From Paracyclopina nana (Eukaryota; Arthropoda; Copepoda; Cyclopoida; Cyclopettidae): a stretch of 64,000 nt of DNA. Below, one piece after another: positions 21,201 to 51,361 of the stretch (positions within the stretch are counted from its first letter, which is position 1; the number at the start of each line of letters is the position of its first letter). The stretch is from contig JAGUCH010000004.1 in the NCBI GenBank assembly GCA_019096065.1, forward strand, positions 3,410,001 to 3,474,000, read 5' to 3'. The notes under the pieces are model-generated. The model was not told the DNA's origin. It searched no databases and was given only the letters and a program-made list of their open reading frames with translations. The translations under genes were made by a program, and so were the position numbers.

Positions 21201-24200
21201 GTGAGGAAAAGCATAAATTCCGGATGAGCTTGCAGCACTTGTCCCCTGGCCAAGATGTGGAGCTCACGCCTTTGGATTAAGGGCTCGAGTATGGCAAGAG
21301 CATCAGGAGGGGCCTGGTCCACATCTTCAACGAGCAACCAAGCTCCAGACAAGACAGCCTTTGTTATCACTCCGTTGCTCCATGTGAACTGGCCAGGGAC
21401 ATCTTGGCAAGAATAGCTTCCAATCAGAGCCTTGCCGTCAATCTGATCATTCATGGCTACCCGAAAGAAGTTATCGAGCTCCTTGTGGCCCGTAAGGCTT
21501 GCCAAATGCTCGACAATTTTGGTTTTCCCACAGCCAAGTGGACCCTGCAAAAAATTATATATTTTTTTTACCTTGGCTATATTTAAACCATCGCGAAATT
21601 AACCACTTTAAAACCATTTAAAAGGCTCACTTTGCTATATCATAACTCGATTGCTACTCTTTATATGCCCAGGATCCTGTCTATTGCTACTCTTCATATG
21701 CCCAGGATCCTGGGCATAGGCATTGTGACAAGATGCACTTTTTGCACTTTTTTCATTAATAAAGCAAAAAGCGAATCAAAAAGTCACTAGAATCAAAGCT
21801 CAAGAAAGAAAATTATTTTACCGACATGATAGCCAGCAAAGTATGCTGATATGAAGTGTTAAGCTAATGCTCAGTACCAATTGGGAAAGCCACAAACCCT
21901 TTGCTTTCCAATGTTTAGGCCAGAATTGCGCGCCCCATCTACTTAGCTGCTGAACTATCTAGTTTGCTCAGTCAGCATTGAGATGCTCCATGTTTTCCTT
22001 ATTGCTCAACTACAGTTTCTCACTTGTTACCTTACTTCTGAACCAATAACAACTACCTTGATACCTTGGATTTACTGCCCTATAATTGGCCTATTTGTTT
22101 ATGTGTTCCATTTATCTACCATGATGTGTTCTTGTGTTCTGCATTGAGTCCATCTGACTCTCCCTATCGGGATGATAAGGTGGCAAGTCATATGGGGTCT
22201 ATCTGACCCTGGTCTATCCGACCAATCTGGCTCTTCAGCCATGTATTTTGCCTGCCACAGTAGCAGCTCACCAATGCATGTATTTAGCGTCAGCTAAGGG
22301 GGCATTTCCAGCCGAAACATCCAACAATTAAAATTAACCTGAAATATTTTTGGTCTTGGAGTTATAAGCCTTTGCACTAGTCCTATTTTATTTGCATAAC
22401 TCCTTAGAATCGGGCTGTGGACCATCTTAACAAACATTGAAAATGAGTTCAGATAAAAGAAATTGTCCAAAAGATTATGCTTATGCTTCTCAAGTGCAAT
22501 GTGATAAGAAAAAAAACATTTATCGTTTTGCGCCAAAGTAAAACGAGAAATGGGCCGTGAAAATAAAACGCAAAAATTCGCGCATAGGTGCGAATATTTT
22601 GCGATTTATCTATTTAACGTTTTTATGCTTTACCCATGCCCATTTTTAAGTAATTTTAGAGCCTCCAACCCTGTAAAATATTGGTGTGGAAAAAACATCC
22701 TTAGAACCGCTCGCGAACCGCTAAAATAACCTGTAATCATCAGAGCAAAAGATTTTGATAAGAGTATCTCGTTCTAAACAACAGCTGAACTTTTTTTGGG
22801 AAAAATATATTAAGGTACAGCTCAAACTACAGCTCCGAACGGAACAAAAATTTGAGGTGTTCAAGGTTTCTCGGTAACACTACAAAATACCTAATAAAAA
22901 AAATAGCATACAGAAAAAAAACAGAATTCAAGGAGAAAAGGAGATGTCTCAAAATTGGCATTTGGCGCGTGGGATTTCTCCACATATGCATAAGAGGAAT
23001 GAAGTTAAGTTTAGCGAGCTGCTGCAGCATCCTCGCCACTGACCCAACTAACACTGACCTTATGTACACGCGGAGAAATCCCGTGCGCCAAATGCCGATT
23101 TTGAGACATCCCCTTTTTCTTATATTTTTTACTACTAGAGTCTATGCAGATTTTTCTAGCTATGTAGTGTTTTGACTATCTATGATTCAGCAAGGCTAGC
23201 AATCTTTGCGATGTTTCGTCATATTTTAACTTTTGAGGGCACCATATTGTCCCTGAAGGCTCTCTTTGTAGCATGTGTTCTCCCTTAGACTTTACTCGAG
23301 TGCAACTTCAATTACTTTTGCACCAAGCACATCACCCAGAATGCACAGAAACATAGCTCTGTTCAAATGCGAATCCGCACAAGTACGAAAAGTATTTTTT
23401 TCAAAGTAAGACTGCGATCACTTCGAGCAAAGACTGTTGAAAGACTTTATGTCAAAAGTCTCATTAACTATAAAAAACCACATACATAGTATATATCACA
23501 CTGCAGTGAGTTTATATGCCGATTTCACGCGCTCGGAAAAAAGTCGCAAAATCAAAGTAGCACCTCTTTTTTACAAGCCGTTGCCCGTAGGCTAAAAATA
23601 CAAAAAAGCACAAGGGTGAACAAGTAAGTTTTGCTCAATTTGAGCAAAATTGTTATTAAACTGAATTTGCCCAAATCAATTTTTGGCCAAAAATTACTTT
23701 TTCTTCGACAAATTTGAATCTTTATCAGTCAATTTGCGGCTAGGACTGCATACCCAACCTTCAAATACTCCCAAAACAAGATTATACAAGAATACATTAA
23801 CAATAAATAAGTAGTCAAAGCATTGTTCATAAAGATTTGATGCACATGAAACAATCTGAACAATCTGAACAAACTGAACATTCTGAACAATCTGAACAAT
23901 CCGAACAATCTGAACAATCTGAACAATGTGAACAAACTGAACATTCTGAACAATCTGAACAATCCGAACAATCTGAACAAACTGAGGAAACTGAACAATC
24001 CGAACAATCCAAACATTCTGAACATTCTGAACAATCCGAACATTCTGAACAATCTGAACAATCTGAACAATCCAAACAATCTGAACATTCTGAACAATCT
24101 GAACAATCCGAACAATCTGAACAATCTGAACATTCTGAACAATCTGAACATTCTGAACAATCTGAACAATCTGAACAATCAGAACAATCTGAACAATCTG

Positions 24201-27200
24201 AACAATCTGAACAAACTGAAAATTCTGAACAATCCGAACATTCTGAACAATTTGAAGAATCTGAACATTCTGAACAATCTGAAATATCTGAACAAACTGA
24301 ACATTCTGAACAATCCGAACAATCCGAACAATCCGAACATTCTGAACAATTTGAAGAATCTGAACAATCTGAACAATCCGAACATTCTGAACAATCGGAA
24401 CATGCTGAACAATCCGAACATTCTGAACAATCTGAACATTCCGAACAATCTGAACATTCTGAACAATCTGAAATATCTGAACAAACTGAACATTCTGAAC
24501 AATCCGAACAATCTGAACATTCTGAACAATCTGAACAATCCGAACAATCCGAACAATCTGAACATTCTGAACAATCTGAACAATCTGAACAATCTGAACA
24601 ATCAGAACAATCTGAACAATCTGAACAATCTGAACAATCTGAACAATCTGAACAATCTGAACAAACTGAAAATTCTGAACAATCCGAACATTCTGAACAA
24701 TTTGAAGAATCTGAACATTCTGAACAATCTGAAATATCTGAACAATCTCAACAATCTCGACAATCTGAAGAATCTGAACAATCTGAACATTCTGAACAAT
24801 ATGAACAAACTGAACATTCTGAACAGTCCGAACAATCTGAACATTCTGAATATTCTGAACAATCCGAACAATCCAAACAATCTGAACAATCCGAACATTC
24901 TTAACCATCCGAACAATCTGAATATTCTGTACAATCCGAACAATCTGAACATTCTGAACAATCCGAACATTCTGAACTATCCGAACAATCTGAACAATCT
25001 GAACAAACTGAACATTCTGAACAATCCGAACAATCTGAACATTCTGAACAATCTGAACAATCCGAACAATCTGAACAATCTGAACAATCTGAACAATCTG
25101 AACATTCTGAACAATTCTGAACAATCTGAACAATCCGAACAATCTGATCATTCTGAACAATCTGAACAATCCGAACAATCTGAACAATCTGAACATTCTG
25201 AACAATCCGAACAATCTGAACAATCCGAACATTCTTAACCATCCGAACAATCTGAACAATCCGAACATTCTGTACAATCCAAACAATCTGAAAATTCTGA
25301 ACAATCCGAACATTCTGAACTATCCAAACAATCTGAACAATCTGAACAAACTGAACATTCTGAACATTCCGATCATTCTGAACAATCCGAACAATCTGAA
25401 CAATCCGAACAATCTGAACATTCTGAACAATCAGAACAATCCAAACATTCTGACCAATCCCAACAATCCAAAAAATCTGAACATTCTGAACAATTTAAAC
25501 ATTCTGAACAATCCGTTTCTTCAAAACTTGAAGATTTTTGACTTTGTTTACCTATTTTATTTTTAGTTTTGCACTTTTCAGCTCAGAGATGGCGCTGCTG
25601 TAGCAGGCAAAATGTGCTTTTCTACTGACAAAATTTTTCATAAAATAAGAAATGTGTACAATGCTCAAATATTAACATTAACAATGTGCAAATTGTTTAT
25701 AATGTTTGCAATGTTCGCATTGCTACATTTTTAACTACAATAGCAGTCATCCCACATTTTTGTAGTTTTTTAGTAGTTACTAAAACGGGCGATATCAATT
25801 TCACCTAGGTTCACCTACAAATTACGGCATAATTTACTACTGAATATAGATAACTTCAGGGTTTTGGGCTGAATATTTTTGATTGGCCTTAATTTAATAG
25901 CACAAAGAAAAATGTTTTAAATTTGTTTTGTCCCCTCTAAAATTGGCAAATATCAATGTAATTTTGCTTTGTGTATTTTTTTTAGTTATGTCATAATTTT
26001 GTAGGTAATGAAAGATATTTCACAATGCAAGAAATGCTTAACATTCTTCTTGTAAGTGAAAGAACTATGGCATAATTTTGGCTGTAACTTAATTAAGGTA
26101 AACATATGGAGCTCTATCATTGAAATGGTTACAAAAAAAGAAAAACTAAGAATAAATAATAGAAAAAAATATTTTCGGAAACCCGTCATGCCCGTGCATG
26201 TCGCGCATTTTAGAAGTCGCACATGTCCCAACCAGAAATTCTGAGCCTGAGCCCTCATACGCCAAAAAACCCTACATATAATTTACAAAGTAAGAATACA
26301 TGTATTGAAAGTATGAGTAGATTTTTTATTCAGGAAAAAGTTTTGGTAGTTAAGCTGCAAGCGTACTATATAAAAGAGAAAATTACAGAAATCAAGTTTG
26401 TGATGCCTTGTCAAATATTGAAGGGATTAACTATCAGGGGCCGCGACTGCATAGGCAGGGATCAAATGCAAGCAAAACTTAGATTTATTTTCACAAAAAA
26501 TATAGATTACGCCGTGTGAACCTGTGTGTGGTGTGTTCGCCATGTTCGGTGTGTTCATCGTGTTCGGTGTGTTCGGTGTGTTCGCCCATGTCTGCCGTGT
26601 TCGCCGTGTTCGCCAAGTTCGGTGTGTTCGCCGTGTTTGCTGTGTTCGGCCGTGTTTGGTGTGTTCGCCCGTGTTTGGTGTGTTCGCCCGTGTTCGGTGT
26701 GTTCGCCCGTGTTCAGTGTGTTCGCTGTGTTCGCCGTGTTCGCTATGTACGCCGTGTTCGCCGTGTTTGCCGTGTTCGCTGTGTTTGCTGTGTTCGCTGT
26801 GTTCTCTGTGTACGCCGTGTTCGGTGTGTTAGTCCGTGTTCGGTGTGTTCGCCAGTGTTCGGTGTGTTCGCCCGTGTTCGGTGTGTTCGCCCGTGTTCGG
26901 TGTGTTCACCCGTGTTCGGTGTGTTCGCCCGTGTTCGGTGTGTTCGCCCGTGTTCGCTGTGTTCGGCTGTGTTCGGCCGTGTTCGGTGTGTTCGCCAGTG
27001 TTCGGCGTGTTTGGTGTGTTCGCCCGTGTTCGGTGTGTTCGCCCGTGTTCGGTGTGTTCGCCCGTGTTCGGTGTGTTCGCCCGTGTTCGGTGTGTTCGCC
27101 CGTGTTCGTTGTGTTTGGTTGTGTTCGGCGGTGTTCGGTGTGTTTGCCATGGTTCGGCGTGTTCGGTGTGTTCGCCCGTGTTCGGTGTGTTCGCCCGTGT

Positions 27201-30200
27201 TGGTGTGTTCGCCCGTGTTCGGTGTGTTCGCCCGTGTTGGTGTGTTCGCCCGTGTTCGCTGTGTTTGGCTGTGTTCGGCTGTGTTCGGCTGTGTTCGGTG
27301 TGTTCGCCGTGTTCGCTGTGTTCGCCGTGTTCGCTATGTACACCGTGTTGGCGGTGTTTGCGGTGTTTGCTGTGTTCTCTGGGGTTTGTGTGTGCGCCGT
27401 GTTTGCTGTGTTCGCCCGTGTTCGGTGTGTTTGGTGTGTTCGACCGTGTTCGGTGTGTTTGCCCGTGTTTGGTGTGTTCGCCCGTGTTCGGTGGGTTCGC
27501 CTGTGTTCGGTGTGTTCGCCCGTGTTCGGTGTGTTCGCCCGTGTTCGGTGTGTTCGCCCGTGTTCGGTGTGTTCGCCGGGGTCGCTGTGTTCGCCGTGTT
27601 CGCTACGTGCGCCGTGTTCTCCGTGTTGGCTGTGTTTGCTGTGTTCGCTGTGTTGTCTGTGTACGCCCGTGGTTTGCTGTGTTCGCCCGTTTTCGGTGTG
27701 TTCGACCGTGTTCGGTGTGTTCGCCCATGTTCGGTGTGTTCGCCCGTGTTCGGTGTGTTCGCCCGTGTTCGGTGTGTTCGGTGTGTTCGCCCGTGTTCGG
27801 TGTGTTCGCCGTGTTTGCTGTGTTCGGCCGTGTTTGCTGTGTTCGGCCGTGTTTGGTGTGTTCGCCCGTGTTTGGTGTGTTCGCCCGTGTTCGGTGTGTT
27901 CGCCCGTGTTCAGTGTGTTCGCCCGTGTTTGGTGTGTTTGCCCGTGTTCGGTGTGTTCGCCCGTGTTCAGTGTGTTCACCCGTGTTCGGTGTGTTCGCCC
28001 GTGTTCGGTGTGTTCGCTGTGTTCGCCGTGTTCGCTATGTACGCCGTGTTCGCCGTGTTTGCCGTGTTTGGTGTGTTCGCCCGTGTTTGGTGTGTTCGCC
28101 CGTGTTCGGTGTGTTTGCCCGTGTTCAGTGTGTTCGCCCGTGTTCGGTGTGTTCGCCCGTGTTCGGTGTGTTCGCTGTGTTCGCCGTGTTCGCTATGTAC
28201 GCCGTGTTCGCCGTGTTTGCCGTGTTCGCTGTGTTTGCTGTGTTCGCTGTGTTCTCTGTGTACGCCGTGTTCGCTGTGTTCGGCCGTGTTCGGTGTGTTC
28301 GTCCGTGTTCGGTGTATGTTCGTCCGTGTTCGGTGTGTTCGCCCGTGTTCGGTGTGTTCGCCCGTGTTCGGTGTGTTCGGTGTGTTCGCCCGTGTTCGGT
28401 GTGTTCGCCCGTGTTCGCTGTGTTCGGCTGTGTTTGCTGTGTTCGGCCGCAATTTTGCTCTTGCAATTATTCACGTTACGCGAGTTTTGCTCCTAGCTCA
28501 AAAAGTTGCAAAAAAATATGCTAGTTTCAGTTCTTATTTTGCACTAGGAGACCAGTCATGTCAAAATTAGATGAAAAAAGGCCAAAGTTTAGCCTTTGTC
28601 AAAAAATGCAATTTTGCTCTTGCAATTATTCACGTTACGCGAGTTTCACTCCTAGCTCAAAAAGTTGCAAAAAATATATGCTAGTTTCAGTTCTTATTTA
28701 GCACTAGGAGACCAGTCATGTCAAAATTAGATGAAAAAGGCAAAATTTTGGCCTTTGACAAAAAATGCAATTTTGCTCATGCAATTATTCACATTACGCG
28801 AGTTTCGCACCTAGTTTTAAAAAATGTCAAAAAATATGCTAGTTTCAGTTCTAATTTTGCACTAGGAGACCAGTCATGTCAAAACTAGATGAAAAAAAGG
28901 CCAAAGTTTGGCCTTTGTGAAAAAATGCAATTTTGCTCTTGCAATTATTCACGTTACGCGAGTTTTGCTCCTAGCTCAAAAAGGGGATATACTAAAATGC
29001 GCGACATGCGCGACTTACGCGACAAGCGCGACATGAGCGACAAACTACTAAAATGCGCGACATGCGCGACTACTAAAATGCGCGACAAGCACCACAGGTT
29101 ACTAAAATGCAAAAACTTCTTGAAATATTTTTTCTATTTACTGTTACTGATTAATTGTTATGCTTTTTCATAAATATTAGATTGAAGGGTAGTGTCTAAA
29201 TAGGGCAAACAAGGCAAACAAGGGCAAACAGAGGCAAACAAGGGCAAACAAGGGCAAACAAAGGCAAACAAGGGCAAACAAAGGCAAACAAAGGCAAACA
29301 AATAGATTTATGCTTAATTTATGCCTTTTGGCTTTACCTTGGTGTGGAAGGCCAAAAAGGCCAGAAAAAGTTGACTTGACCAATATTGCAGCAGTTTTGC
29401 ACCTTTTGCTTTTTACGCGTAAAACCGAAAAGTTGATTTTGGGCCAAACAATTTTCAGGATGCTTTAATGGCCCAAAAGTGACTTTATTGGACTTCTATC
29501 ATGTCCAATTAATTGAAATTAATTGATTGAAATTAGCTGATTCATATTACCATATGTCTTTCTTTTAAGCCTTACCTTGTGTGTCGTTGAGTGCGTTGCA
29601 ATTTTATTTTGTTTGCCCTCGTTTCCAAAACATAATTATTTTGTTTGCCCCTGTTTGCCTTTGTTCGCCTTTGTTTGCCCTTGTTTGCCTTTGATTGCCC
29701 TTTTTTCCGATGCATTTTTATTTTGTTTGCCCTTGTTTGCCTTTGTTTGCTCTTGTTTGCCTTTGTTTGCCCTTGTTTGCCCTTGTTTGCTGCTGTTTGC
29801 CCTTGTTTGCCTTATTTAGACATGCCCCATTGAAGTAGCTCACTCTGCACTGTTCACCTATAGTTATGGCCAAAATTATGGCATAGTTTTTTATCAGAGA
29901 GGAGATAAAACAATGCAAAATTTTTAGAATTGCCAACAAAAAAAGACTACAAGCCTATTATTCTAGGTACGCCGTGTGTACCTTCTGATATAGCAATTAT
30001 AGCCTAGATTTGCTGTATCATGAGCATTATTATTATACAGTCTGTACTCGTCCGTTCAATATTGGACGGTGTGGGAATCTTTGGGTTTCATAATCCAGAA
30101 ATACTGGACTTAAAAAATCTCATTGGAAAGCTGGAGCCTTTTCCCATCTTTTTTGTCAAAATAGAAAAAAATCCTTTAAATTCAGTACAGCACTGTCCAA

Positions 30201-33200
30201 TTTTGAATGGACAGACTGTATATTATTAATAATGGATTAATAATCCAAGTACTTTTGGTTGTCCCATAATTTAATAGTCGCGCATGTCGCGCATTTTAGT
30301 AGTCGCGCATGTCGCGCATTTTAACAGTTTGTCGCGCATGTCGCACATTTTAGTAGTCGCGCATGTCGCGCATTTAAGTAGTTTGTCGCGCATGTCGCGC
30401 TTGTCGCGCATGTCGCGCATTTTAGTATATCCCCTCAAAAAGTTGCAAAAAAAAATATGCTAGTTTCAGTTCTTATTTTTCACTAGGAGAATGATGGCTT
30501 TTTGGAATCACATTTTGTAAAGATTCTATTATCATAGTAGCTCAATCACGAATTTCGGTGCCCAATTCAGTTTGTTCTCTGGTTTCCAAAACTGTAAATA
30601 GATCAAAAATCGGAGCATTTGTCGAATTTTGGTGCTGAATACAAGATTAAAACAGCAGCCTTAGTACAATGCACTACATAGCAGCCTGTCAGCTGAGATT
30701 TACGGAGGCAAGATGCTGAGATGCTGAGTTTGCTCACTAATAAAAAGTGTTCAGTTTGGTCTCTAGATTCCAAATCTGTAAATAGATCCAAAATCGGAGG
30801 ATTTTTCGAATTTTGGCATTGAAAAAAAATTGATTTGATTAGAATGCCTTTAAAGGGTTAAGGCTCTGTTAACCTGCAATATTATCAGGAAATTAACGAA
30901 TGATATTATGCTGATATTTGCAAATATTCAGTATTAGTAAGATGTAAAACACAGTCATCTAACAAAAATTGAGCTCATATGGTTGAGGTTAACCAGAGAT
31001 CTAGCGAAAATACAAAAAGTACTAATAAACAGCCACACTAAAAAGTCATTGAGAGGAAAAAATCACAATAAAAAATTGTGAGGAATGCAAAATCACGATT
31101 GTTTACAAAAATTCAGCTCATTTGATTGAGGCTTACTGGAGATATAGCGAAAATACAAAAAAACGCTCATAAACAGATGCCTTTTAGATTCAGAAACTGA
31201 AAAAAGTTAAAAATAAAATTGTAGCCCCAGCAAAATGGGAGCCACACACAAAAATTCAGCTCATTTCGTTAATTGGGAGCGGAGAAAATGGAAGTCTGTC
31301 ATTTGGCAAAAAATCAAAAAATCCCACTTATAAAGATCATGCATGATGGGGAGAGGAATGCACGCCAAACAGATTGATAGCTCTAATTATGTGCACAGGG
31401 CTCCCAAATAATCGTACTAGTTTTTATATGGCCATTCCCTTTTGTAGGCCTTTCTCATATTGCCGGAAAAAGAAAAGCTAAGGTAAAAATAGCTAAGCTA
31501 AGATAAAAATAGCTAAGCTAAGATAAAAATAGCTAAGCTAAGATAAAAATAGCTAAGCGAACGCTCAACATTTCAAGCAAAGTAGCTGCTTATTGTGAAT
31601 GTTGAGCGAAATAACCGGTTTTCGTTGTATAATTTTTACCTTAGCTTAGCTAATTTTACCTTAGCTTTGCTTTTTCCGGCAAAATAAGAACGGCCTAAAA
31701 AGGGAATGGCCATATTAATTTTACTTCTGCTTACTTCTGTCATTTTAGTGAAATTGCTTTTGAAAAACCTAATTTATGAAATTCTCTCCAAACAAGCCAT
31801 TTTTCAACCAATTAAAAAATGCAAAAGACAATCTTAATATTTGAGCATTGTACACATTTGTTATTTTATGAAAAATTTTGTGGGTAGAAAAGCACATTTT
31901 GCCTGCTACAGCAGCGCCATCTCTGAGCTGAAAAGTGCAAAACTAAAAATAAAATAGGTAAACAAAGTCAAAAATCTTCTAGTTTTGAAGAAACAGATTG
32001 TTCAGAATGTTTGAATTGTTCAGAATGTTCGGATTTTTTGGATTGTTGGGATTGGTCAGAATGTTTGGATTGTTCTGATTGTTCAGAATATTCAGATTGT
32101 TCGGATTGTTCAGATTGTTCGGATTGTTCAGAATGATCGGAATGTTCAGAATGATCGGATTGTTCAGAATGTTCAGATTGTTTGGATTGTTCAGAATGTT
32201 CAGATTGTTCGGATTGTTCGGATTGTTCAGAATGATCGGATTGTTCGGATTGTTCAGAATGTTTGGATTGTTCAGCATGTTCGGATTGTTCAGAATGCTC
32301 AGATTGTTCGGATTGTTAAGAATGATCGGATTGTTCAGAATGATCGGATTGTTCAGATTGTTAAGAATGTTCAGAATGTTCAGATTGTTCGGATTGTTCA
32401 GAATGCTCAGATTGTTCAGAATGATCGGATTATTCAGAATGATCGGATTGTTCAGAATGTTCAGAATGTTCAGATTGTTCGGATTGTTCAGAATGTTCAG
32501 ATTGTTTGGATTGTTCAGAATGTTCAGATGGTTTGGATTGTTCAGAATGTTCAGATTGTTCGGAATGTTCAGATTGTTCAGAATGTTCGGATTGTTCAGC
32601 ATGTTCGGATTGTTCAGAATGCTCAGAATGTTCGGATTGTTCAGAATGTTCAGATTGTTCAGATTGTTCGGATTGTTCAGAATGTTCAGATTGTTCGGAT
32701 TGTTCAGAATGTTCAGATTGTTCGGATTGTTCAGATTGTTCAGAATGTTCAGAATGTTCAGATTGTTCGGATTGTTCAGAATGTTCAGAATGTTCAGTTT
32801 GTTCGGATTGTTCAGAATGTTCAGATTGTTCGGATTGTTCGGATAGTTCAGAATGTTCAGATTGTTCGGATTGTTCGGATAGTTCAGAATGTTCAGATTG
32901 TTCGGATTGTTCAGAATGTTCAGATTGTTCAGATTGTTCAGAATGTTCAGAATGTTCAGATTGTACGGATTGTTCAGAATGCTCAGAATGTTCGGATTGT
33001 TCAGAATGCTCAGATTGTTCAGAATGTTCAGATTGTTCAGATTGTTCAGAATGTTCAGATTGTTTGGATTGTTCAGAATGTTCAGATTGTTCGGATTGTT
33101 CAGATTGTTCAGAATGTTCAGAATGTTCAGATTGTTCGGATTGTTCAGAATGTTCGGATTGTTCAGAATGTTCGGATTGTTCAGAATGTTCAGATTGTTC

Positions 33201-36200
33201 GGATTGTTCGGATAGTTCAGAATGTTCAGATTGTTCGGATTGTTCAGAATGTTCAGATTGTTCAGAATGTTTAGAATGTTCAGATTGTTCGGATTGTTCA
33301 GAATGTTCAGATTGTTCAGATTGTTCAGAATGTTCAGAATGTTCAGATTGTACGGATTGTTCAGAATGCTCAGAATGTTCGGATTGTTCAGAATGCTCAG
33401 ATTGTTCAGAATGTTCAGATTGTTCAGATTGTTCGGATTGTTCAGAATGTTCAGATTGTTCAGATTGTTCAGAATGTTCAGATTGTTCGGATTGTTCAGA
33501 TTGTTCGGATTGTTCAGAATGATCGGAATGTTCAGAATGATCGGATTGTTCAGAATGTTCAGATTGTTTGGATTGTTCAGAATGTTCAGATTGTTCGGAT
33601 TGTTCGGATTGTTCAGAATGTTCAGATTGTTCAGAATGTTTAGAATGTTCAGATTGTTCGGATTGTTCAGAATGTTCAGAATGTTCGGATAGTTCGGATT
33701 GTTGAGAATGCTCAGAATGTTCGGATTGTTCAGAATGTTCAGATTGTTCAGATTGTTCAGATTGTTCAGAATGTTTGGATTGTTCAGAATGTTCTGATTG
33801 TTCAGAATGTTCGGATTGTTCAGAATGTTCAGATTGTTTGGATTGTTCAGAATGTTCAGATTGTTCAGAATGTTCAGATTGTTCAGAATGTTCAGATTGT
33901 TCAGAATGTTCAGATTGTTCAGAATGTTCAGATTGTTCAGATTGTTTTTATGTGCATCAAATCTTTTTGAATAATGTTTTGATTACTTATGTTTTGTTAA
34001 TGTAGTCTTTTATGATATTGCTTTGGGAGTATTTGAAGGTTGGGTATGCAGTCCTGGCCCAATTTGCATTATTTGTACTCTTTAAATAGCCTAGAAGTCG
34101 CACAAATTTGAAACTGAAAATTGGCTTAAATCAGAAATCTGCGATTCGACGTAACTTCTCGTACGCGTCGTATCGGCTTTTTGATCCACTTTGCACATTT
34201 GCAATTTTATGATCATTATTGCCTTTTCACTTTTTTAAAGATCTTTTTGCCTTGATTTAAAGTATGTTAATTGTTTTGCTAGGAAATTCATCACAATTCA
34301 TCTTGTAATATTTTTGGCATTCGGGAAAATTCAAAATTATGTCAATAATTAATACCTTTTCAACTTATCTAAAAGTTTGTTGATCATACAATCTCTTTTA
34401 GATTTGAGCTATAATTGCAGCGAGAAAAGGTCCACAAGGCCACTGAACTCAAACAGGGAACCAATTGATTCTTTGCCTGAGTTTGCATCAAACTTTAGCA
34501 CTGTTCTCTAAAGCAGCCGAGTGCGAAATATCCGAGAGAAAAACTGAGAATCTGAGCATTTTGATATGCAGGAGTAGGATAGAGCACTAGATTTTGATGT
34601 GAGAGTATCTCGTTCTCAACAACAGCAGAACTTTTTTGGGATTTTTTACTAAGGTATAGCTCAAACTACAGCTCTGATCGGAACGAAAATTTGAGGTGTT
34701 CATGGTTTCTCGGTAAAATTACAAAATACCAAATAAAAAAATAGCATAACATAATATAATAAACGGTGGAACACAAATGGGCAGATGCCGTCCTACCGTA
34801 GCCCGGCCGGCAACCTTAAGCTAGCTGTTGGCTGTTTTTGGGAACTGAGTTTTGAGAACGTTCTACTCATCAAAATCTACCGCTCTGATGATGGAAGGTT
34901 ATTGGCGCCTTAACAGCTTCTGACTGTAAGCCACAATTAATCCTGATACAAGCTTTCGGATTTGAAAATCAATTTTTTGGCTCAAACCCCTTGTAATGTT
35001 GTGAAAAGTTGGAAAATTAAGTTTCATAACCACTGGACCACTCTAGGGTGGTTCAGTGGTGCGGAAAGAAAAAGGCTGTTTAGATTAAGGCAAAAATGAA
35101 TGATGGCCTAGCTGGAGGTGTGGGTATGACCAGAAATCAACTATACCCTAATTATCTAGGCCCTAGGGGGTTCTCTAGGTGTCAGGGGAAAAAAGTTGAA
35201 AAACGTAAACAAACTAGTTGAAAAATGGCCAAAATTCACTTTTTCGGATCCTACTTTGAGGGCATTTTCCTCCCATGTCAGTGATGGATTTTTGATTTTT
35301 CAACTCTAGATGAAAGTCAAAAATTAGAACTATCATTACAAAAAAGTAAAATCATTGTCTGCAAATGGAGCTCCTGGAGCGATTCAAATATACATATTTT
35401 TTATTTTTGAAAAATGCCTTTACAGAAATACATATCAAACTGACAAGCAGAAGTGAAGTCATGGACAAAAATTTTTTATCATGTTAAACATGTCAGTGCT
35501 CACCTAGAGGCTTGTCCCAAGCAAAAAAATTCAGGGTACATTGGCCCTGGCCAGGAGCCTGGGCGGTTCCAGTTATGCTCTGCTGTAGCAGCTATTATAT
35601 GGCAACAGGGAGCCCCTGGCTCCCATGCCAGTAGATGAAAGTGTCTTTTTTCGGCCCATCTGTGCAGACCTGGAGGCTTGTCCCACGCAAAATAATTCAG
35701 GGTAAATTGGCTCTTGCCAGCCAAGCATAACTAGAATCCCCAAGGCTCCTGGCTAGGGCCAATGTACCTTGAATTTTTTTGAATTCTTTTCACACTATTA
35801 CTAGGGGTTTGGACCAAAAAACTGATTTTCAAATCCGAAAGCTTGTATCAGAATTGCTTGTGGCTTACAGTGCAGTCAGAAGCTGTTAAGACGGGAAACG
35901 GTGTAAAGGTCGAAATTTTATGTCCAAATCAACAATAGGATTTGTCAGTCGAATGTTTTTGGATGTATGCTTAAGTCGAAATATTTGGGTATTAAGGTCG
36001 AAAGATTTTCGACTTCTTGGTGATAAGGCCGAAATGTGAGATTTTGCGCATAAAACAATGCCTTGATTTCTTAACTTCGGCTTTTTTTGCAGCTTTATAT
36101 ACAAAAGAACCTCAGGTTCTACTTTTCACATCATTCCCACGCCGATTAATCCCCCGATTGAATGTTATTCTTAATAGATTTTTTGTAATGAATCAGCAAA

Positions 36201-47900: not shown

Positions 47901-48463
47901 AAGCCCCATCACTATTTATGCTATTTTTGTGGAATACCTGGTTCTGATTGCCAGCGTAGGTTGTGCTCGTATTGATGACAACTTTGTGTATCCGGCCGAA
48001 GCGGCCAAAATACTCTGGCTTTTTGAGGACATCGGGGTCCGCCAATCGCGGCGACAAGCCCACCACGAAGACGAGATTTCGCTGGACTACTCTGACATTG
48101 GCCAAGTGCTTTCTGTTCTCGGAGATACGCTGCTTTTTGGCCAAATCCTTTTGCCGCTTCTCCGCCTTTATTTTGGCCAGTTCTTCGGCCGTGAGAGGCT
48201 TGAAGTCTGCCGGGTTCTCCGAGTAGGGTGACCGACAGGCCGGGCAGAGACCTGAGCCTTCTGTGCGGATCTTGTTCCAACAAAATCGACAGATCTGCCG
48301 AGGAGAGAGAGAGAGAGTAGTGAGCAGGCTCACGGCCTTCATCAAGCCTTACCTGGTAGCCGCAACTGCAGGGAAAAAAGTTCAGATCGTCGATTTCGAA
48401 GGGTTCTAAGCACAAAGGACATTCTTGAGGCTCTTCGTCAGAATTTGGATTTAGGACGCTCAT
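44710..48463 (-). CDS. CNOT4: CNOT4 E3 ubiquitin ligase (CCR4-NOT associated)
   Basis: Seven exons (48463-48353, 48294-47938, 47876-47687, 47619-47256, 47198-46612, 46552-46109, 45194-44710) join in frame to 845 aa. A C4C4 RING opens the protein (ECPLCLEPFEIDDLNFFPC, then CRFCWNKI and LCPACRSPY). A lysine/arginine-rich coiled segment, an RRM (NLVFVVGLSPRLADPDVLKK) and a CCCH zinc finger (YCSHFMKNMTCPKHDCMYLH) come next. HELGDEAASFTKEEMQ is shared with vertebrate CNOT4. The long C-terminal half is disordered, with polyglutamine near residue 750 and a conserved DWTSLDPAI. CNOT4/Not4 ubiquitinates stalled ribosomes and targets mRNA decay and protein quality control. Intron 4 is only 57 bp and stop-free in frame; the last intron (914 bp) is the longest. 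Confidence 0.95.
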
Positions 48464-49282
48464 GGCTAAAACTTTGTCAATTTCAGGGGTGTTGGTTTCT
48501 CTTCAAGCCGGAACTGATGTTTCACAAATGGTTCCTACGGACGAAAGAGGCGATATCGAGGTGGATAATTTCAATGTCTCTATTCTTATTACGTACGTAG
48601 TTTTTAGAAGTCTCAGTACATAACAGCAGCGTCTGCTTCGCTGCAGCTGATTAAGCTGACCGAAAAATGGGCCCAAGCACAGAGTAGACGTCAAAGGTCT
48701 CCAATAATGGGCTTTTTCGCCAAAAAAGATTGCTCCCTTGAGATAAATCTTCTTTTTTGATGGGTTTTAAGTCATCTTTTATTGATGTGAAGTGCTTTAG
48801 GTCAACAAGAGTGAAGGCTATTCCTATTTCAAGCCTGAAATAGCTATGCTTGCTCTTCTCTCACTTTCATGGTTTTTCGTCATGGAGAATTTCCGGCTAG
48901 ACTGGCAGTCGAGGCTGGATGGAAAATATGGCTGCTACCTTCGGTTTGGCGGAATTGGCCTTGGCGGCAGAAAAAAGAAAAATAAACTTGCTTCGTTTCT
49001 CAAGCATTGCGCATCCGTTCGCGGGTAACTCCGTGCACATGCGGTGCAATGATGACACATTCATCAATGAATGCGCACTTTTTTCGAGAAAAAGCCAATT
49101 TATCTGGATGTCCAAGTCTGTTTGACGTTATGGGCAATGATTAAAGGGACTTGACATCATAATTCAGAATTTTTCATGTGACCCTCGGAATATATGTTAC
49201 GCCTTTTCAGCAACCTCCGAAATGTAAAAAGTAAACAAAGTTTTGCCACTTTTTCATCTATCTTGCAATTTACGGCTGAAGG
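48464..49282. promoter_or_regulatory. Divergent region between CNOT4 and TIMM10B
   Basis: About 820 bp between oppositely oriented starts. No coding exon or repeat is recognised. It should contain both promoters. Confidence 0.35.
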
Positions 49283-49786
49283 ATGGCTCTGCAGCAAGCA
49301 ATTCTTAATCAAGAGTCTATGAGAAACGTGAGTTGATTTCAGTAATGTTGCTGCTACTGTGTTTTTATTTTGCATCGCTCTTCAGTTCAGGGAATTTCTT
49401 GAGATGTACAACAGGACAACCGAATCATGTTTTAAGCACTGCATAGTAAATCTTCACATGAGAGATGTGACACCCGAAGAAAACCAGTGCCTTAATGATT
49501 GCACTTCTAAAACTGCTCGCTTGAACCATCGAGTTTTGTCTGCGTTCATGGTTGAACAGCCCAAAATTGTCCAACAAAAGTAAAGCTATCTTACAACTAA
49601 ATACAGTTGCATTATGATCATATCCTTCTATTTACCAGGGTTGAAACAGTGCAGAGAGAAACAGAGGCTGCTATGAAGGCTCTTGAGGCTCAAGGAATAT
49701 CAGCAGAGAATCTCAGCCCTGAGGAAATGGCCCAGAGAGTTTTGCAAGGCATGGCTGCTCCCTCGTCACAACCCACCAAGCACTAG
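49283..49786 (+). CDS. TIMM10B: TIMM10B/Tim9b small mitochondrial import chaperone
   Basis: Exons 49283-49327, 49386-49579 and 49639-49786 give 128 aa. The twin CX3C motif of small TIM proteins is present (CFKHC at residues 30-34, CLNDC at 50-54). The lead-in RNFREFLEMYNRTTESC resembles human TIMM10B (RDFLLVYNRMTELC). A Glu-rich C-terminal helix (AENLSPEEMAQRVLQGM) extends it beyond the approximately 100-aa vertebrate protein. Small TIMs are intermembrane-space chaperones that carry hydrophobic precursors; TIMM10B docks on the TIM22 complex. The stop codon (784-786 of 49 kb) is followed after only AAA by the PSTK start codon, so both may share one mRNA. Confidence 0.92.
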
Positions 49787-49789
49787 AAA

Positions 49790-50692
49790 ATGGCAAAACA
49801 ACCTGCAGCCCTTGTTCTCTTGATAGGACTGCCAGCTGCAGGAAAGACCACTTTTGCCAAGACATTCAGTGTATCTGTGGCAAACAGTGATAATTGTGTT
49901 GTAACTGTTGAATATGATAGACTTATCTCGCTAGAAAAACAAAAGAAGTTGGTCACTGCTGACAGCTCTGTTGATTGGAAAGCAGAGAGGAGATCTGTGC
50001 TCAAGTTAGTGGCTGATTATTTTCAGGGCATTTCTGTCCCCCAAATATCTTCAGAGGCAATTGATAGGAGCAAAAGAGTCATTGTCTTGATAGATGACAA
50101 CAATTACTACTCAAGCATGAGATATGAATATTTTCAGCTAGCTCGTATGCTCCAAATTGGCTTCTGCCAATTATTTATTGACGTACCCTTAGATAAAGCA
50201 AAGTTGCAGAACTTTGAGAGGAGCTCATCAATTCAGGTACCTTGTGCTGTAATAGAAAAAATGGCTGCTAAATTGGAGCCTCCCAATCCTGACAAGAACT
50301 CTTGGGATAAATTGTCTTTAACAATTGAAAATGCTGACTGTGAAACTATGAGCTTAATTTTGGATCTTGTTAATGAAGCTAGTGAAAATCCAGTCAAGCC
50401 ACTTGAAGAGCCTATGGAAAAGCAAGCGTGTCCCGAAAACTTACTACATGAAGTGGATAAATTGCTAAGGAAACATATAAGTGAACGGATGAGAAGTTCA
50501 TCAGCAATGAATCTTTCAAAAGAACATCTTCAGTTGAAGGCAAAGGGATTGAAATTGGTAAAGGACAAATTGCGCCAAGACTTGAAATTTGGCCACATAG
50601 CAATACCGGAAAATATTGCGACTGTCAACCCAATTTCTCCCCTATTAGATAATTTTGTTCATCAATTGATACAGGAAAGAATAAACTATTAA
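49790..50692 (+). CDS. PSTK: L-seryl-tRNA(Sec) kinase
   Basis: One exon of 300 codons. A P-loop GLPAAGKT lies at residues 13-20. The conserved LIDDNNYYSSMRYEYFQLAR and GFCQLFIDVPLD match human PSTK (LDDNFYYQSMRYE, GFCQLFLDCPL). KLEPPNPDKNSWDKLSLTI is also family-specific. PSTK phosphorylates Ser-tRNA(Sec), the step before SepSecS makes selenocysteinyl-tRNA, so the organism probably makes selenoproteins. The ATG context (AGAAAATGG) is strong. It begins 3 nt after the TIMM10B stop with no room for a separate 5' UTR. Either a bicistronic mRNA or a promoter inside TIMM10B is needed. Confidence 0.95.
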   Translation: MAKQPAALVLLIGLPAAGKTTFAKTFSVSVANSDNCVVTVEYDRLISLEKQKKLVTADSSVDWKAERRSVLKLVADYFQGISVPQISSEAIDRSKRVIVLIDDNNYYSSMRYEYFQLARMLQIGFCQLFIDVPLDKAKLQNFERSSSIQVPCAVIEKMAAKLEPPNPDKNSWDKLSLTIENADCETMSLILDLVNEASENPVKPLEEPMEKQACPENLLHEVDKLLRKHISERMRSSSAMNLSKEHLQLKAKGLKLVKDKLRQDLKFGHIAIPENIATVNPISPLLDNFVHQLIQERINY

Positions 50693-50889
50693 GAACTTTC
50701 ACAGGCGCATCACATAATTTTTTGCCGCAAAAAAGCAAAAAAAAGTTGCTATGCCATTTCATCTGTTTTTCCTTTTGCTACCGTTATAATGAATGGAGCA
50801 GGAACAGTAGCAGCAATCTTGAAGAGTTTGAATGGTCGTTGCAGTTGGCGGGGTAGTTGACCTAGAGCGATCCCGCAATTTTCTGATTC
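50693..50889. other. PSTK 3' flank
   Basis: Short noncoding stretch up to the hAT-like MITE. No clear AATAAA follows the stop codon here. The last eight bases (TCTGATTC) form the left target duplication of the MITE. Confidence 0.4.
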
Positions 50890-51361
50890 TAGTGATGGAA
50901 CGAGTTTCAGCTTGGCTTGAAAGCTTGAAGCTGAAACCCAGCTTGAGCTACATAAGCAAAAAGCTTGGGATCGCTCGAACCAAATTTTGAAAAGCTTGAA
51001 AAAGCTTGAAACCCAAAAATGCAAAGCTTGAAAAAGCTTGACACCCAAAAAAACTTACTCCATTTTTTATCAAAATAAAAAGGGCTGATTTTAAAATTAA
51101 CTAATACTTGAGGGAGAACTTAAATCTAAGTTAAAGCTATATCTGTCATTATTTGCGCTAATTTTGTCAAATCTGGTGACCAATCGCCATTTTTTATGTT
51201 AAAATTCTAAAAAAGTGAAAAGCTTGAAAAAAGCTTGAAATGTGAAATTTTGAGCTTGAAAAAGCTTGATAATAATTTTCAAAAGCTTGGGATCGCTCGA
51301 ACACTTTTCAAAAAGCTTGAAGCTTGATCAAGCTGAAAATTTCCGGCTCGTTCCATCACTA
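50890..51361. mobile_element. 472-bp hAT-type MITE with 8-bp target duplication
   Basis: The ends are TAGTGATGGAACGAG and its reverse complement. The element is flanked by TCTGATTC at 50882-50889 and 51362-51369. The interior is full of AAGCTTGAAAAAGCTTG repeats and two opposite copies of GATCGCTCGAAC-like sequence, so the arms are again repeat-rich. TIR form and the 8-bp duplication indicate the hAT superfamily. No transposase is present. The inferred empty site reads straight through TTTTCTGATTCACCTC. Confidence 0.85.

What the first reader, a model, noticed from the sequence alone, without database searches (positions are those of the whole stretch)
49283..50692. TIMM10B and PSTK coding regions only 3 nt apart
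The TIMM10B stop TAG is followed by AAA and then the PSTK ATG in strong context. There is no room for a poly(A) site, promoter or trans-splice acceptor between them. Both families are clearly identified and complete. A true bicistronic mRNA (reinitiation or leaky scanning), an alternative first exon within TIMM10B, or a trans-splice site inside TIMM10B exon 3 are the options. An unrelated mitochondrial import chaperone and a selenocysteine enzyme under joint control would be novel.
Basis: partly seen in the sequence, partly recalled or inferred. Interest (0 to 1): 0.75.

Follow-up and report, generated by a model that had tools for sequence, protein, structure and literature searches.

The report
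Two-gene animal mRNA, three-base gap
Two unrelated housekeeping genes sit three bases apart in what is probably an arthropod genome, most likely on one shared message; a very similar pair is already known to share a message in flies, and other gene pairs in this genome are also only 1 to 20 bases apart.

Summary
TIMM10B (three exons, 49283-49786) ends in TAG; AAA follows, then the PSTK ATG (49790-50692, one exon). Identities hold; PSTK is single-copy and separate from KTI12. The only AATAAA in 49283-51000 overlaps the PSTK end.

The pairing is not new: Tim9b-CG12788 is a dicistronic Drosophila gene conserved to Anopheles (PMC2276209). That CG12788 is PSTK is recalled. TTAGG repeats at 9 of 15 contig ends examined suggest a non-fly arthropod, hence an older pair.

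New is the setting: eight further same-strand junctions of 1-20 nt, among them BLOC1S6-WWOX, TIM9like-PIK3CA, SNAPIN-TTC7 and PIGP-ATXN10. All nine restart ATGs have A at -3. Six of the nine first cistrons tested are, in sum, not AUG-depleted (26 observed, 27.4 expected). Acceptor-like sequence is on median no better than control, though the PSTK junction itself reaches the control's 90th percentile.

Best reading: bicistronic mRNA with termination-coupled reinitiation. No RNA data were available.

The parts
49283..49327 (+). TIMM10B exon 1 (start codon, phase-0 donor)
49328..49385 (+). TIMM10B intron 1 (58 nt, GT-AG)
49386..49579 (+). TIMM10B exon 2, twin CX3C small-Tim domain
49580..49638 (+). 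TIMM10B intron 2 (59 nt, GT-AG)
49639..49786 (+). TIMM10B exon 3, ends in TAG at 49784-49786
49787..49789 (+). intercistronic spacer AAA (3 nt; the two cistrons are in the same frame)
49790..50692 (+). PSTK, L-seryl-tRNA(Sec) kinase, single exon, 300 aa, P-loop GLPAAGKTT; only match of its own protein in the genome
50680..50685 (+). AATAAA overlapping the last codons of PSTK; the only AATAAA, and no ATTAAA, on the + strand in 49283-51000 (weaker variants such as AGTAAA and GATAAA occur inside both genes)
48464..49282 (.). intergenic region between TIMM10B and a divergent RING-finger gene on the minus strand (named CNOT4 from recall; its ATG is near 48463), presumed promoter region
   Evidence: promoter role inferred

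Best explanation
TIMM10B and PSTK are one bicistronic transcription unit: one promoter upstream of TIMM10B, splicing of the two TIMM10B introns, and one poly(A) site just after PSTK. Ribosomes translate TIMM10B, terminate at UAG, and a fraction reinitiates at the AUG three bases on, giving a minor amount of PSTK. This fits a small, widely needed import chaperone upstream and an enzyme needed in small amounts downstream. Shown by sequence: the anatomy, the identities, the lack of a canonical poly(A) signal between the genes, the strong restart context and the recurrence of the same architecture in this genome. From print: the dicistronic status of the fly pair. Inferred: that the fly pair is the same pair, the joint mRNA in this species, and reinitiation as the way PSTK is translated.
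For: (1) Spacer of 3 nt and no AATAAA or ATTAAA before 50680. (2) The fly pair Tim9b-CG12788 was annotated as dicistronic by Misra et al. (as cited), and Hayden & Bosco give Ka/Ks 0.32 for the uORF and 0.28 for the mORF, with the association seen in an Anopheles EST (PMC2276209). (3) Eight other junctions in the same genome have 1-20 nt spacers, including MOCS2A-MOCS2B, which PMC2276209 calls a bicistronic transcript. (4) A at -3 in 8 of 8 restart ATGs; the ninth, SNAPIN-TTC7, reads the same. (5) Spacer frame seems irrelevant: 3 of 9 are in frame. (6) Six of the nine first cistrons, those with a full CDS in hand, hold 26 internal AUGs against 27.4 expected; TIMM10B alone 10 against 6.3. This is unlike the leaky-scanning bicistrons of green algae (PMC11892635, passages). 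(7) In yeast, reinitiation by terminating 80S ribosomes works at a one-base spacer and falls as the spacer grows from 10 to 50 bp (PMC11952965, passages).
Against: No RNA, 5'-end or ribosome-profiling data were available, so the joint mRNA is not shown in this species. Reinitiation after a 128-codon ORF is usually inefficient in animals (recalled). Of 159 fly dicistronic loci, 45 also have monocistronic transcripts of both genes and 69 of one (PMC4528330). AATAAA lies at the first stop in two of the eight junctions scored (uORF78-TIM10, TIM9like-PIK3CA), so monocistronic first messages may exist for some pairs. Leaky scanning may act in some pairs: the 78-aa ORF is AUG-poor (1 observed, 4.0 expected) and MOCS2A has C at -3 of its start. 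The best acceptor-like AG before PSTK and before MOCS2B scores 0.71, equal to the control's 90th percentile.
Confidence: 0.62

Rival explanations
1. PSTK has its own promoter inside TIMM10B (intron 1 to exon 3), so the two genes overlap as transcription units and PSTK is translated from a short-leader monocistronic mRNA.
For: Fly dicistronic loci often also have monocistronic isoforms (PMC4528330). One Inr-like TCAGTT lies at 49382.
Against: That Inr-like site sits on the intron 1 splice acceptor, has no DPE match at the tested position, and such sites occur about 1.4 per kb on the + strand of the window. No TATA match in 49100-49790. Transcripts starting before about 49751 would still carry at least one AUG ahead of PSTK.
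Confidence: 0.2
2. A spliced-leader operon: PSTK receives a trans-spliced leader at an acceptor in the last bases of TIMM10B (for example the AG of its own stop codon).
For: The stop codon supplies TAG|AAAATGG, and an AG five bases further up has pyrimidine fraction 0.71. Spliced-leader operons exist in other animals (listings), and calanoid copepods have a spliced leader (PMC4664967, abstract and passages).
Against: Best acceptor-like AG before the eight scored restart ATGs has median pyrimidine fraction 0.59, equal to 0.59 for 116 internal Met codons. Two TIMM10B introns and PIK3CA intron 1 score 0.76, two MYB introns 0.59 and 0.65, so the test has modest power (a sixth intron was dropped because my anchor was misplaced). 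With spacers of 1-4 nt an acceptor would lie in the first CDS or its stop codon, and its use would destroy that message.
Confidence: 0.08
3. Leaky scanning past TIMM10B start codons, as in green algae.
For: Shown for bicistronic loci of green algae (PMC11892635, passages) and argued for two fly dicistronic transcripts by Wall et al. 2005 (title only, as cited).
Against: TIMM10B start context is strong (AGG ATG G) and ten further AUGs lie before PSTK, six with a purine at -3.
Confidence: 0.05
4. Stop-codon readthrough gives a TIMM10B-PSTK fusion protein, because the frames agree.
For: Same frame with a single UAG between.
Against: Across nine junctions only 3 are in frame, the number expected by chance. 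A cytosolic tRNA kinase fused to an intermembrane-space chaperone makes little sense (inference). UAG-A is not a known strong readthrough context (recalled).
Confidence: 0.04

Closest known systems
Drosophila Tim9b (CG17767) - CG12788 dicistronic transcript (Misra et al. 2002 as cited in Hayden & Bosco 2008, PMC2276209)
   Same: Small Tim upstream (117 aa in fly, 128 aa here), second unrelated ORF downstream on the same transcript.
   Different: Fly spacer not seen by me. That CG12788 is PSTK is recalled, supported indirectly (fly PSTK GenBank AAF48985.2 in PMC2500217, an accession I recall as X-linked; CG12788 at 18D in PMC2276209). The most distant species listed there is Anopheles; this genome has TTAGG telomeres.
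MOCS2A-MOCS2B bicistronic gene (CG10238 in PMC2276209)
   Same: Found here with the same stop, short A-rich spacer, ATG layout: 6 nt, in frame.
   Different: Its two proteins are subunits of one enzyme; TIMM10B and PSTK are unrelated.
Fly Tim10 (CG9878) transcript with conserved uORF, seen as far as Ixodes (PMC2276209 Table 1)
   Same: Here TIM10 also follows a small upstream ORF, 78 aa, 9 nt before its ATG.
   Different: Whether the 78-aa peptide is related to the 65-aa fly uORF peptide was not tested; no Pfam match.
Green-algal bicistronic loci (PMC11892635)
   Same: Two ORFs on one nuclear mRNA, with a strong ORF2 start.
   Different: Algal ORF1 is AUG-depleted with a weak start; here six first cistrons are in sum not depleted, and TIMM10B has a strong start.
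Yeast 80S reinitiation on bicistronic mRNA (PMC11952965)
   Same: Works with very short spacers, down to one base or none.
   Different: Induced under selection in yeast; here only the genomic layout is known.

Membership tests
TIMM10B (small Tim) | Tim10/DDP twin CX3C domain, closest to Tim10B | tested here: met
   Pfam E 9.5e-12; human TIM10B E 7.3e-19 against TIM9 8.5e-11
PSTK | eukaryotic PSTK profile and P-loop; not KTI12 | tested here: met
   TIGR03575 E 5.6e-50 but 170.5 bits against a curated cut-off of 382.35; solved PSTKs E 2.7e-14; separate KTI12 gene on C3 with 284 bits
PSTK | host keeps the selenocysteine pathway | tested here: met
   tRNA-Sec 78.8 bits; SepSecS in three exon matches, best E 4.6e-43
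Tim9b-CG12788 dicistronic pair of flies | same two genes in the same order | tested here: inconclusive
   Order and Tim side agree; CG12788 = PSTK is recalled, not verified by a call
Tim9b-CG12788 dicistronic pair of flies | one processed mRNA spans both ORFs | not testable with these tools
   no RNA data
Spliced-leader operon | acceptor with pyrimidine tract before the downstream ATG | tested here: inconclusive
   median 0.59 at 8 junctions against 0.59 in 116 controls, but 0.71 (control 90th percentile) at the PSTK and MOCS2B junctions; small sample
Spliced-leader operon | SL RNA gene and leader on mRNAs | not tested
   no leader sequence known for this species
Leaky-scanning bicistron (green algae type) | AUG depletion and weak start in ORF1 | tested here: not met
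   TIMM10B: 10 internal AUGs against 6.3 expected, strong start; six first cistrons together 26 against 27.4, though the 78-aa ORF alone is depleted and MOCS2A has a weak start
Termination-reinitiation bicistron | very short spacer and strong restart AUG | tested here: met
   spacers 1, 2, 2, 3, 4, 6, 9, 16, 20 nt; A at -3 in 9 of 9, G at +4 in 7 of 9
Termination-reinitiation bicistron | downstream output depends on translation of ORF1 | not testable with these tools
   needs reporters or ribosome profiling

The most novel reading that the evidence does not exclude
This arthropod lineage runs a sizeable set of bicistronic, and in one case possibly tricistronic (TRAPPC2-PIGP-ATXN10), nuclear mRNAs with 1-20 nt spacers. 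Small proteins act as the first cistron, second cistrons include signalling enzymes such as PIK3CA, and translation is coupled by termination-reinitiation rather than by spliced leaders or leaky scanning. TIMM10B-PSTK would be an old, pre-dipteran member of that set.
Probability: 0.4. Interest if true: 0.8.

Novelty: new member of a known kind. Interest (0 to 1): 0.5.

Why it matters
Animal nuclear mRNAs are expected to encode one protein. A genome with several unrelated gene pairs only 1-20 bases apart gives a natural test bed for how animal ribosomes start a second protein after a long first one, and shows how gene annotation can merge or drop second cistrons. If the taxon and the fly identity are confirmed, the pair dates a dicistronic mRNA to before the flies.

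Tried and rejected
Leaky scanning: rejected as the main mode for TIMM10B-PSTK from AUG counts and start context. Readthrough fusion: not favoured, 3 of 9 spacers in frame. Exon 1 donor to the TAG|AAAATG acceptor (phase-compatible): that AG has pyrimidine fraction 0.53, below the control median, but the AG five bases further up has 0.71, so it is not excluded. Nested promoter motifs: one Inr-like site on the splice acceptor, no DPE match, no TATA match.

Species identification did not succeed. TTAGG-type repeats were seen at 9 of the 15 contig ends examined (one of the other six reads all N). PF01395 (odorant-binding) and PF11642 (Blo-t-5) gave no match, but neither rang in any control genome, so absence is weak evidence. 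The rDNA copy found is shortened.

Coding-potential scan: my codon model was too weak (TIMM10B-PSTK was not among the 45 best of 868 candidates), so I dropped it. ORF scan of the window plus ten 10-kb stretches at round positions that I chose (164 kb): 74 downstream ORFs tested, 15 rows printed. TIMM10B-PSTK is the only row where I know families on both sides, but this is a weak test: apart from it, I ran Pfam on the downstream ORF of four rows and the upstream ORF of one, some window rows overlap ORFs scanned, and the rest I judged by eye. One 16-nt pair (L044 near 9801) has no Pfam match on either side and stays open. Pfam on 20 ORFs of L041-L045 matched 9, three of them retrotransposon parts; L046-L050 were not scanned that way. 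I saw no sign that such pairs are a large fraction of genes, at low power.

Searches for print: PSTK with TIMM10B or bicistronic, dicistronic/operon/Daphnia, CG12788, operons and arthropods, polycistronic reinitiation, dicistronic in crustaceans, mites and springtails. In those listings I saw no report of short-spacer gene pairs as a genome-wide feature of an arthropod. Papers: PMC2276209 outline, passages and section 5 part 1; PMC4528330, PMC2500217, PMC11952965 and PMC11892635 passages; PMC4664967 abstract and passages; PMC8977481 search listing only; Misra et al. 2002 not read (one recalled id tried, not held), seen only as cited.

Full report
Observation. The layout is as described. TIMM10B exons 49283-49327, 49386-49579 and 49639-49786 splice into a 128-aa protein ending in TAG; AAA follows, then the PSTK ATG at 49790, open for 300 codons. 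TIMM10B is nearest to human TIM10B among solved small Tims. PSTK matches the eukaryotic PSTK model (E 5.6e-50, though its 170.5 bits lie below the model's curated cut-off of 382.35) and solved PSTKs. A search of the genome with the PSTK protein found only itself, and a separate KTI12 exists. The host has tRNA-Sec and SepSecS, so PSTK has a pathway to serve.

Transcript logic. On the + strand of 49283-51000 the only AATAAA is at 50680, on the last codons of PSTK, and there is no ATTAAA; weaker variants such as AGTAAA and GATAAA occur within the genes. No TATA match and one unconvincing Inr-like site lie in 49100-49790. A divergent RING-finger gene, which I take by recall to be CNOT4, starts near 48463 on the other strand, leaving about 0.8 kb as presumed promoter region. 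The simplest transcript runs from there through both ORFs.

Is it known? Probably yes, in flies. Hayden & Bosco 2008 name Tim9b-CG12788 (renamed CG12788-CG17767) among five of the 31 dicistronic genes of Misra et al. that hold conserved-peptide uORFs. Ka/Ks is 0.32 for the uORF and 0.28 for the mORF, and Anopheles is the most distant species with the association (PMC2276209). The rows I saw give no function for the CG12788 product. I recall it as PSTK; the indirect support is that fly PSTK is GenBank AAF48985.2 (PMC2500217), an accession I recall as X-linked, while CG12788 maps to 18D. PMC2500217 also reports pstk as missing or a residual pseudogene in the syntenic region of D. willistoni, which has no selenoproteins. 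If CG12788 is PSTK, the second cistron can decay when selenoproteins are lost, so the pairing is probably not a functional partnership.

Which organism? The genome has 92 Mb in nine large contigs (6.3-17.8 Mb) and one of 268 kb. Of 15 contig ends examined, 9 carry runs of TTAGG or its complement, described as the arthropod type in the abstract of PMC8977481 (search listing). Flies lack TTAGG (recalled). The species was not found. A non-dipteran arthropod would make the pair older than the published Dipteran depth; this is an inference.

The setting. Loci fetched for other reasons show the same layout. From the six zf-Tim10_DDP matches, four lie in tight pairs: TIMM10B-3-PSTK; a 78-aa ORF-9-TIM10; TIM9-16-TIM22; and a TIM9-like gene-2-PIK3CA, where the joined first two exons give the p110-alpha N-terminus (E 2.7e-43). 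In the other two, L003 and L004, I saw none on inspection. I then searched three families because fly members are in the published list (MOCS2, snapin, PIG-P); the snapin family also returned a pallidin-type gene. All four loci found are tight: MOCS2A-6-MOCS2B, BLOC1S6-1-WWOX, SNAPIN-2-TTC7, and TRAPPC2-20-PIGP-4-ATXN10. This second set was chosen with the hypothesis in mind, so it is not an unbiased rate; SNAPIN and PIGP have partners other than those listed for flies. Gene names rest on Pfam or solved-structure matches; TIM22 (as against Tim17 or Tim23), WWOX, BLOC1S6 and NDOR1 are named partly from recall. KTI12 is followed by an ACBP gene after 145 nt, and near SepSecS I saw no tight neighbour on inspection. 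In 164 kb of window plus ten stretches, 74 ORFs gave no second pair with known families on both sides, but most rows were judged by eye.

Mechanism. Spacers are 1, 2, 2, 3, 4, 6, 9, 16 and 20 nt. Restart ATGs have A at -3 in 8 of 8, and the ninth reads the same; G at +4 in 7 of 9. Three of nine are in frame, so fusion by readthrough is not the rule. Best acceptor-like AGs before the eight scored restart codons have median pyrimidine fraction 0.59, the same as before 116 internal Met codons; the PSTK and MOCS2B junctions reach 0.71, the control's 90th percentile, while five introns score 0.59-0.76. So the sequence gives no clear support for trans-splicing but does not exclude it; the stronger argument is that an acceptor so close would cut the first message. 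Six of the nine first cistrons, those with a full CDS in hand, hold 26 internal AUGs against 27.4 expected; the 78-aa ORF alone is poor (1 against 4.0), and MOCS2A has C at -3 of its start. Green-algal bicistrons, where leaky scanning was supported, are AUG-depleted with weak first starts (PMC11892635). Yeast can restart 80S ribosomes at one-base spacers, less well as spacers grow (PMC11952965). I therefore favour termination-coupled reinitiation. AATAAA lies at the first stop in two of eight junctions scored, so some first cistrons may also have their own short messages.

Verdict. The pair is a new member of a known kind: an animal dicistronic gene of which a probable counterpart is known in flies. 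The wider point, a set of very short-spacer gene pairs in one arthropod-like genome, is the part worth following. It rests on genomic layout alone, and no RNA evidence was available.

Noticed in passing
L005:1495-1722 and PIK3CA start 2 nt later (G000:C2 near 7253976): A TIM9-like small Tim gene ends 2 nt before the start codon of a PI3-kinase p110-alpha-type gene.
   Followed up: yes
L040:1055-3016 (G000:C4 near 6793711): TRAPPC2, PIGP and ATXN10 in a row with spacers of 20 and 4 nt, a possible three-gene message.
   Followed up: yes
L039:1447-3067 and L038 minus strand about 1917-722: Pallidin-type gene 1 nt before a WWOX-type gene; snapin 2 nt before TTC7.
   Followed up: yes
L002:1474-3185: TIM9, a TIM22-type gene and an NDOR1-like flavodoxin gene in a row with gaps of 16 and 90 nt; TIM9 and TIM22 act in the same import pathway (recalled).
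   Followed up: partly
L001:1146-1743: A 78-aa ORF with a hydrophobic stretch sits 9 nt before TIM10; fly Tim10 also has a conserved upstream ORF (65 aa), but the two peptides were not compared.
   Followed up: partly
L035:1501-2749: KTI12 followed by an acyl-CoA-binding protein gene after 145 nt on the same strand.
   Followed up: no
window 31971-34002 and 23697-28567: Clusters of long overlapping open frames in several frames on both strands; where read (near 24970 and 33222) they are MFRLFGLFR-type repeats, probably tandem repeats and not genes.
   Followed up: no
window 50867-51360: Repeated AAGCTTGA-rich sequence downstream of PSTK.
   Followed up: no
L034:962-2137 minus: A shortened rDNA copy on contig C6.
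   Followed up: partly
L044:9475-10000 minus / L051: Two ORFs 16 nt apart without Pfam match; nature unknown.
   Followed up: partly
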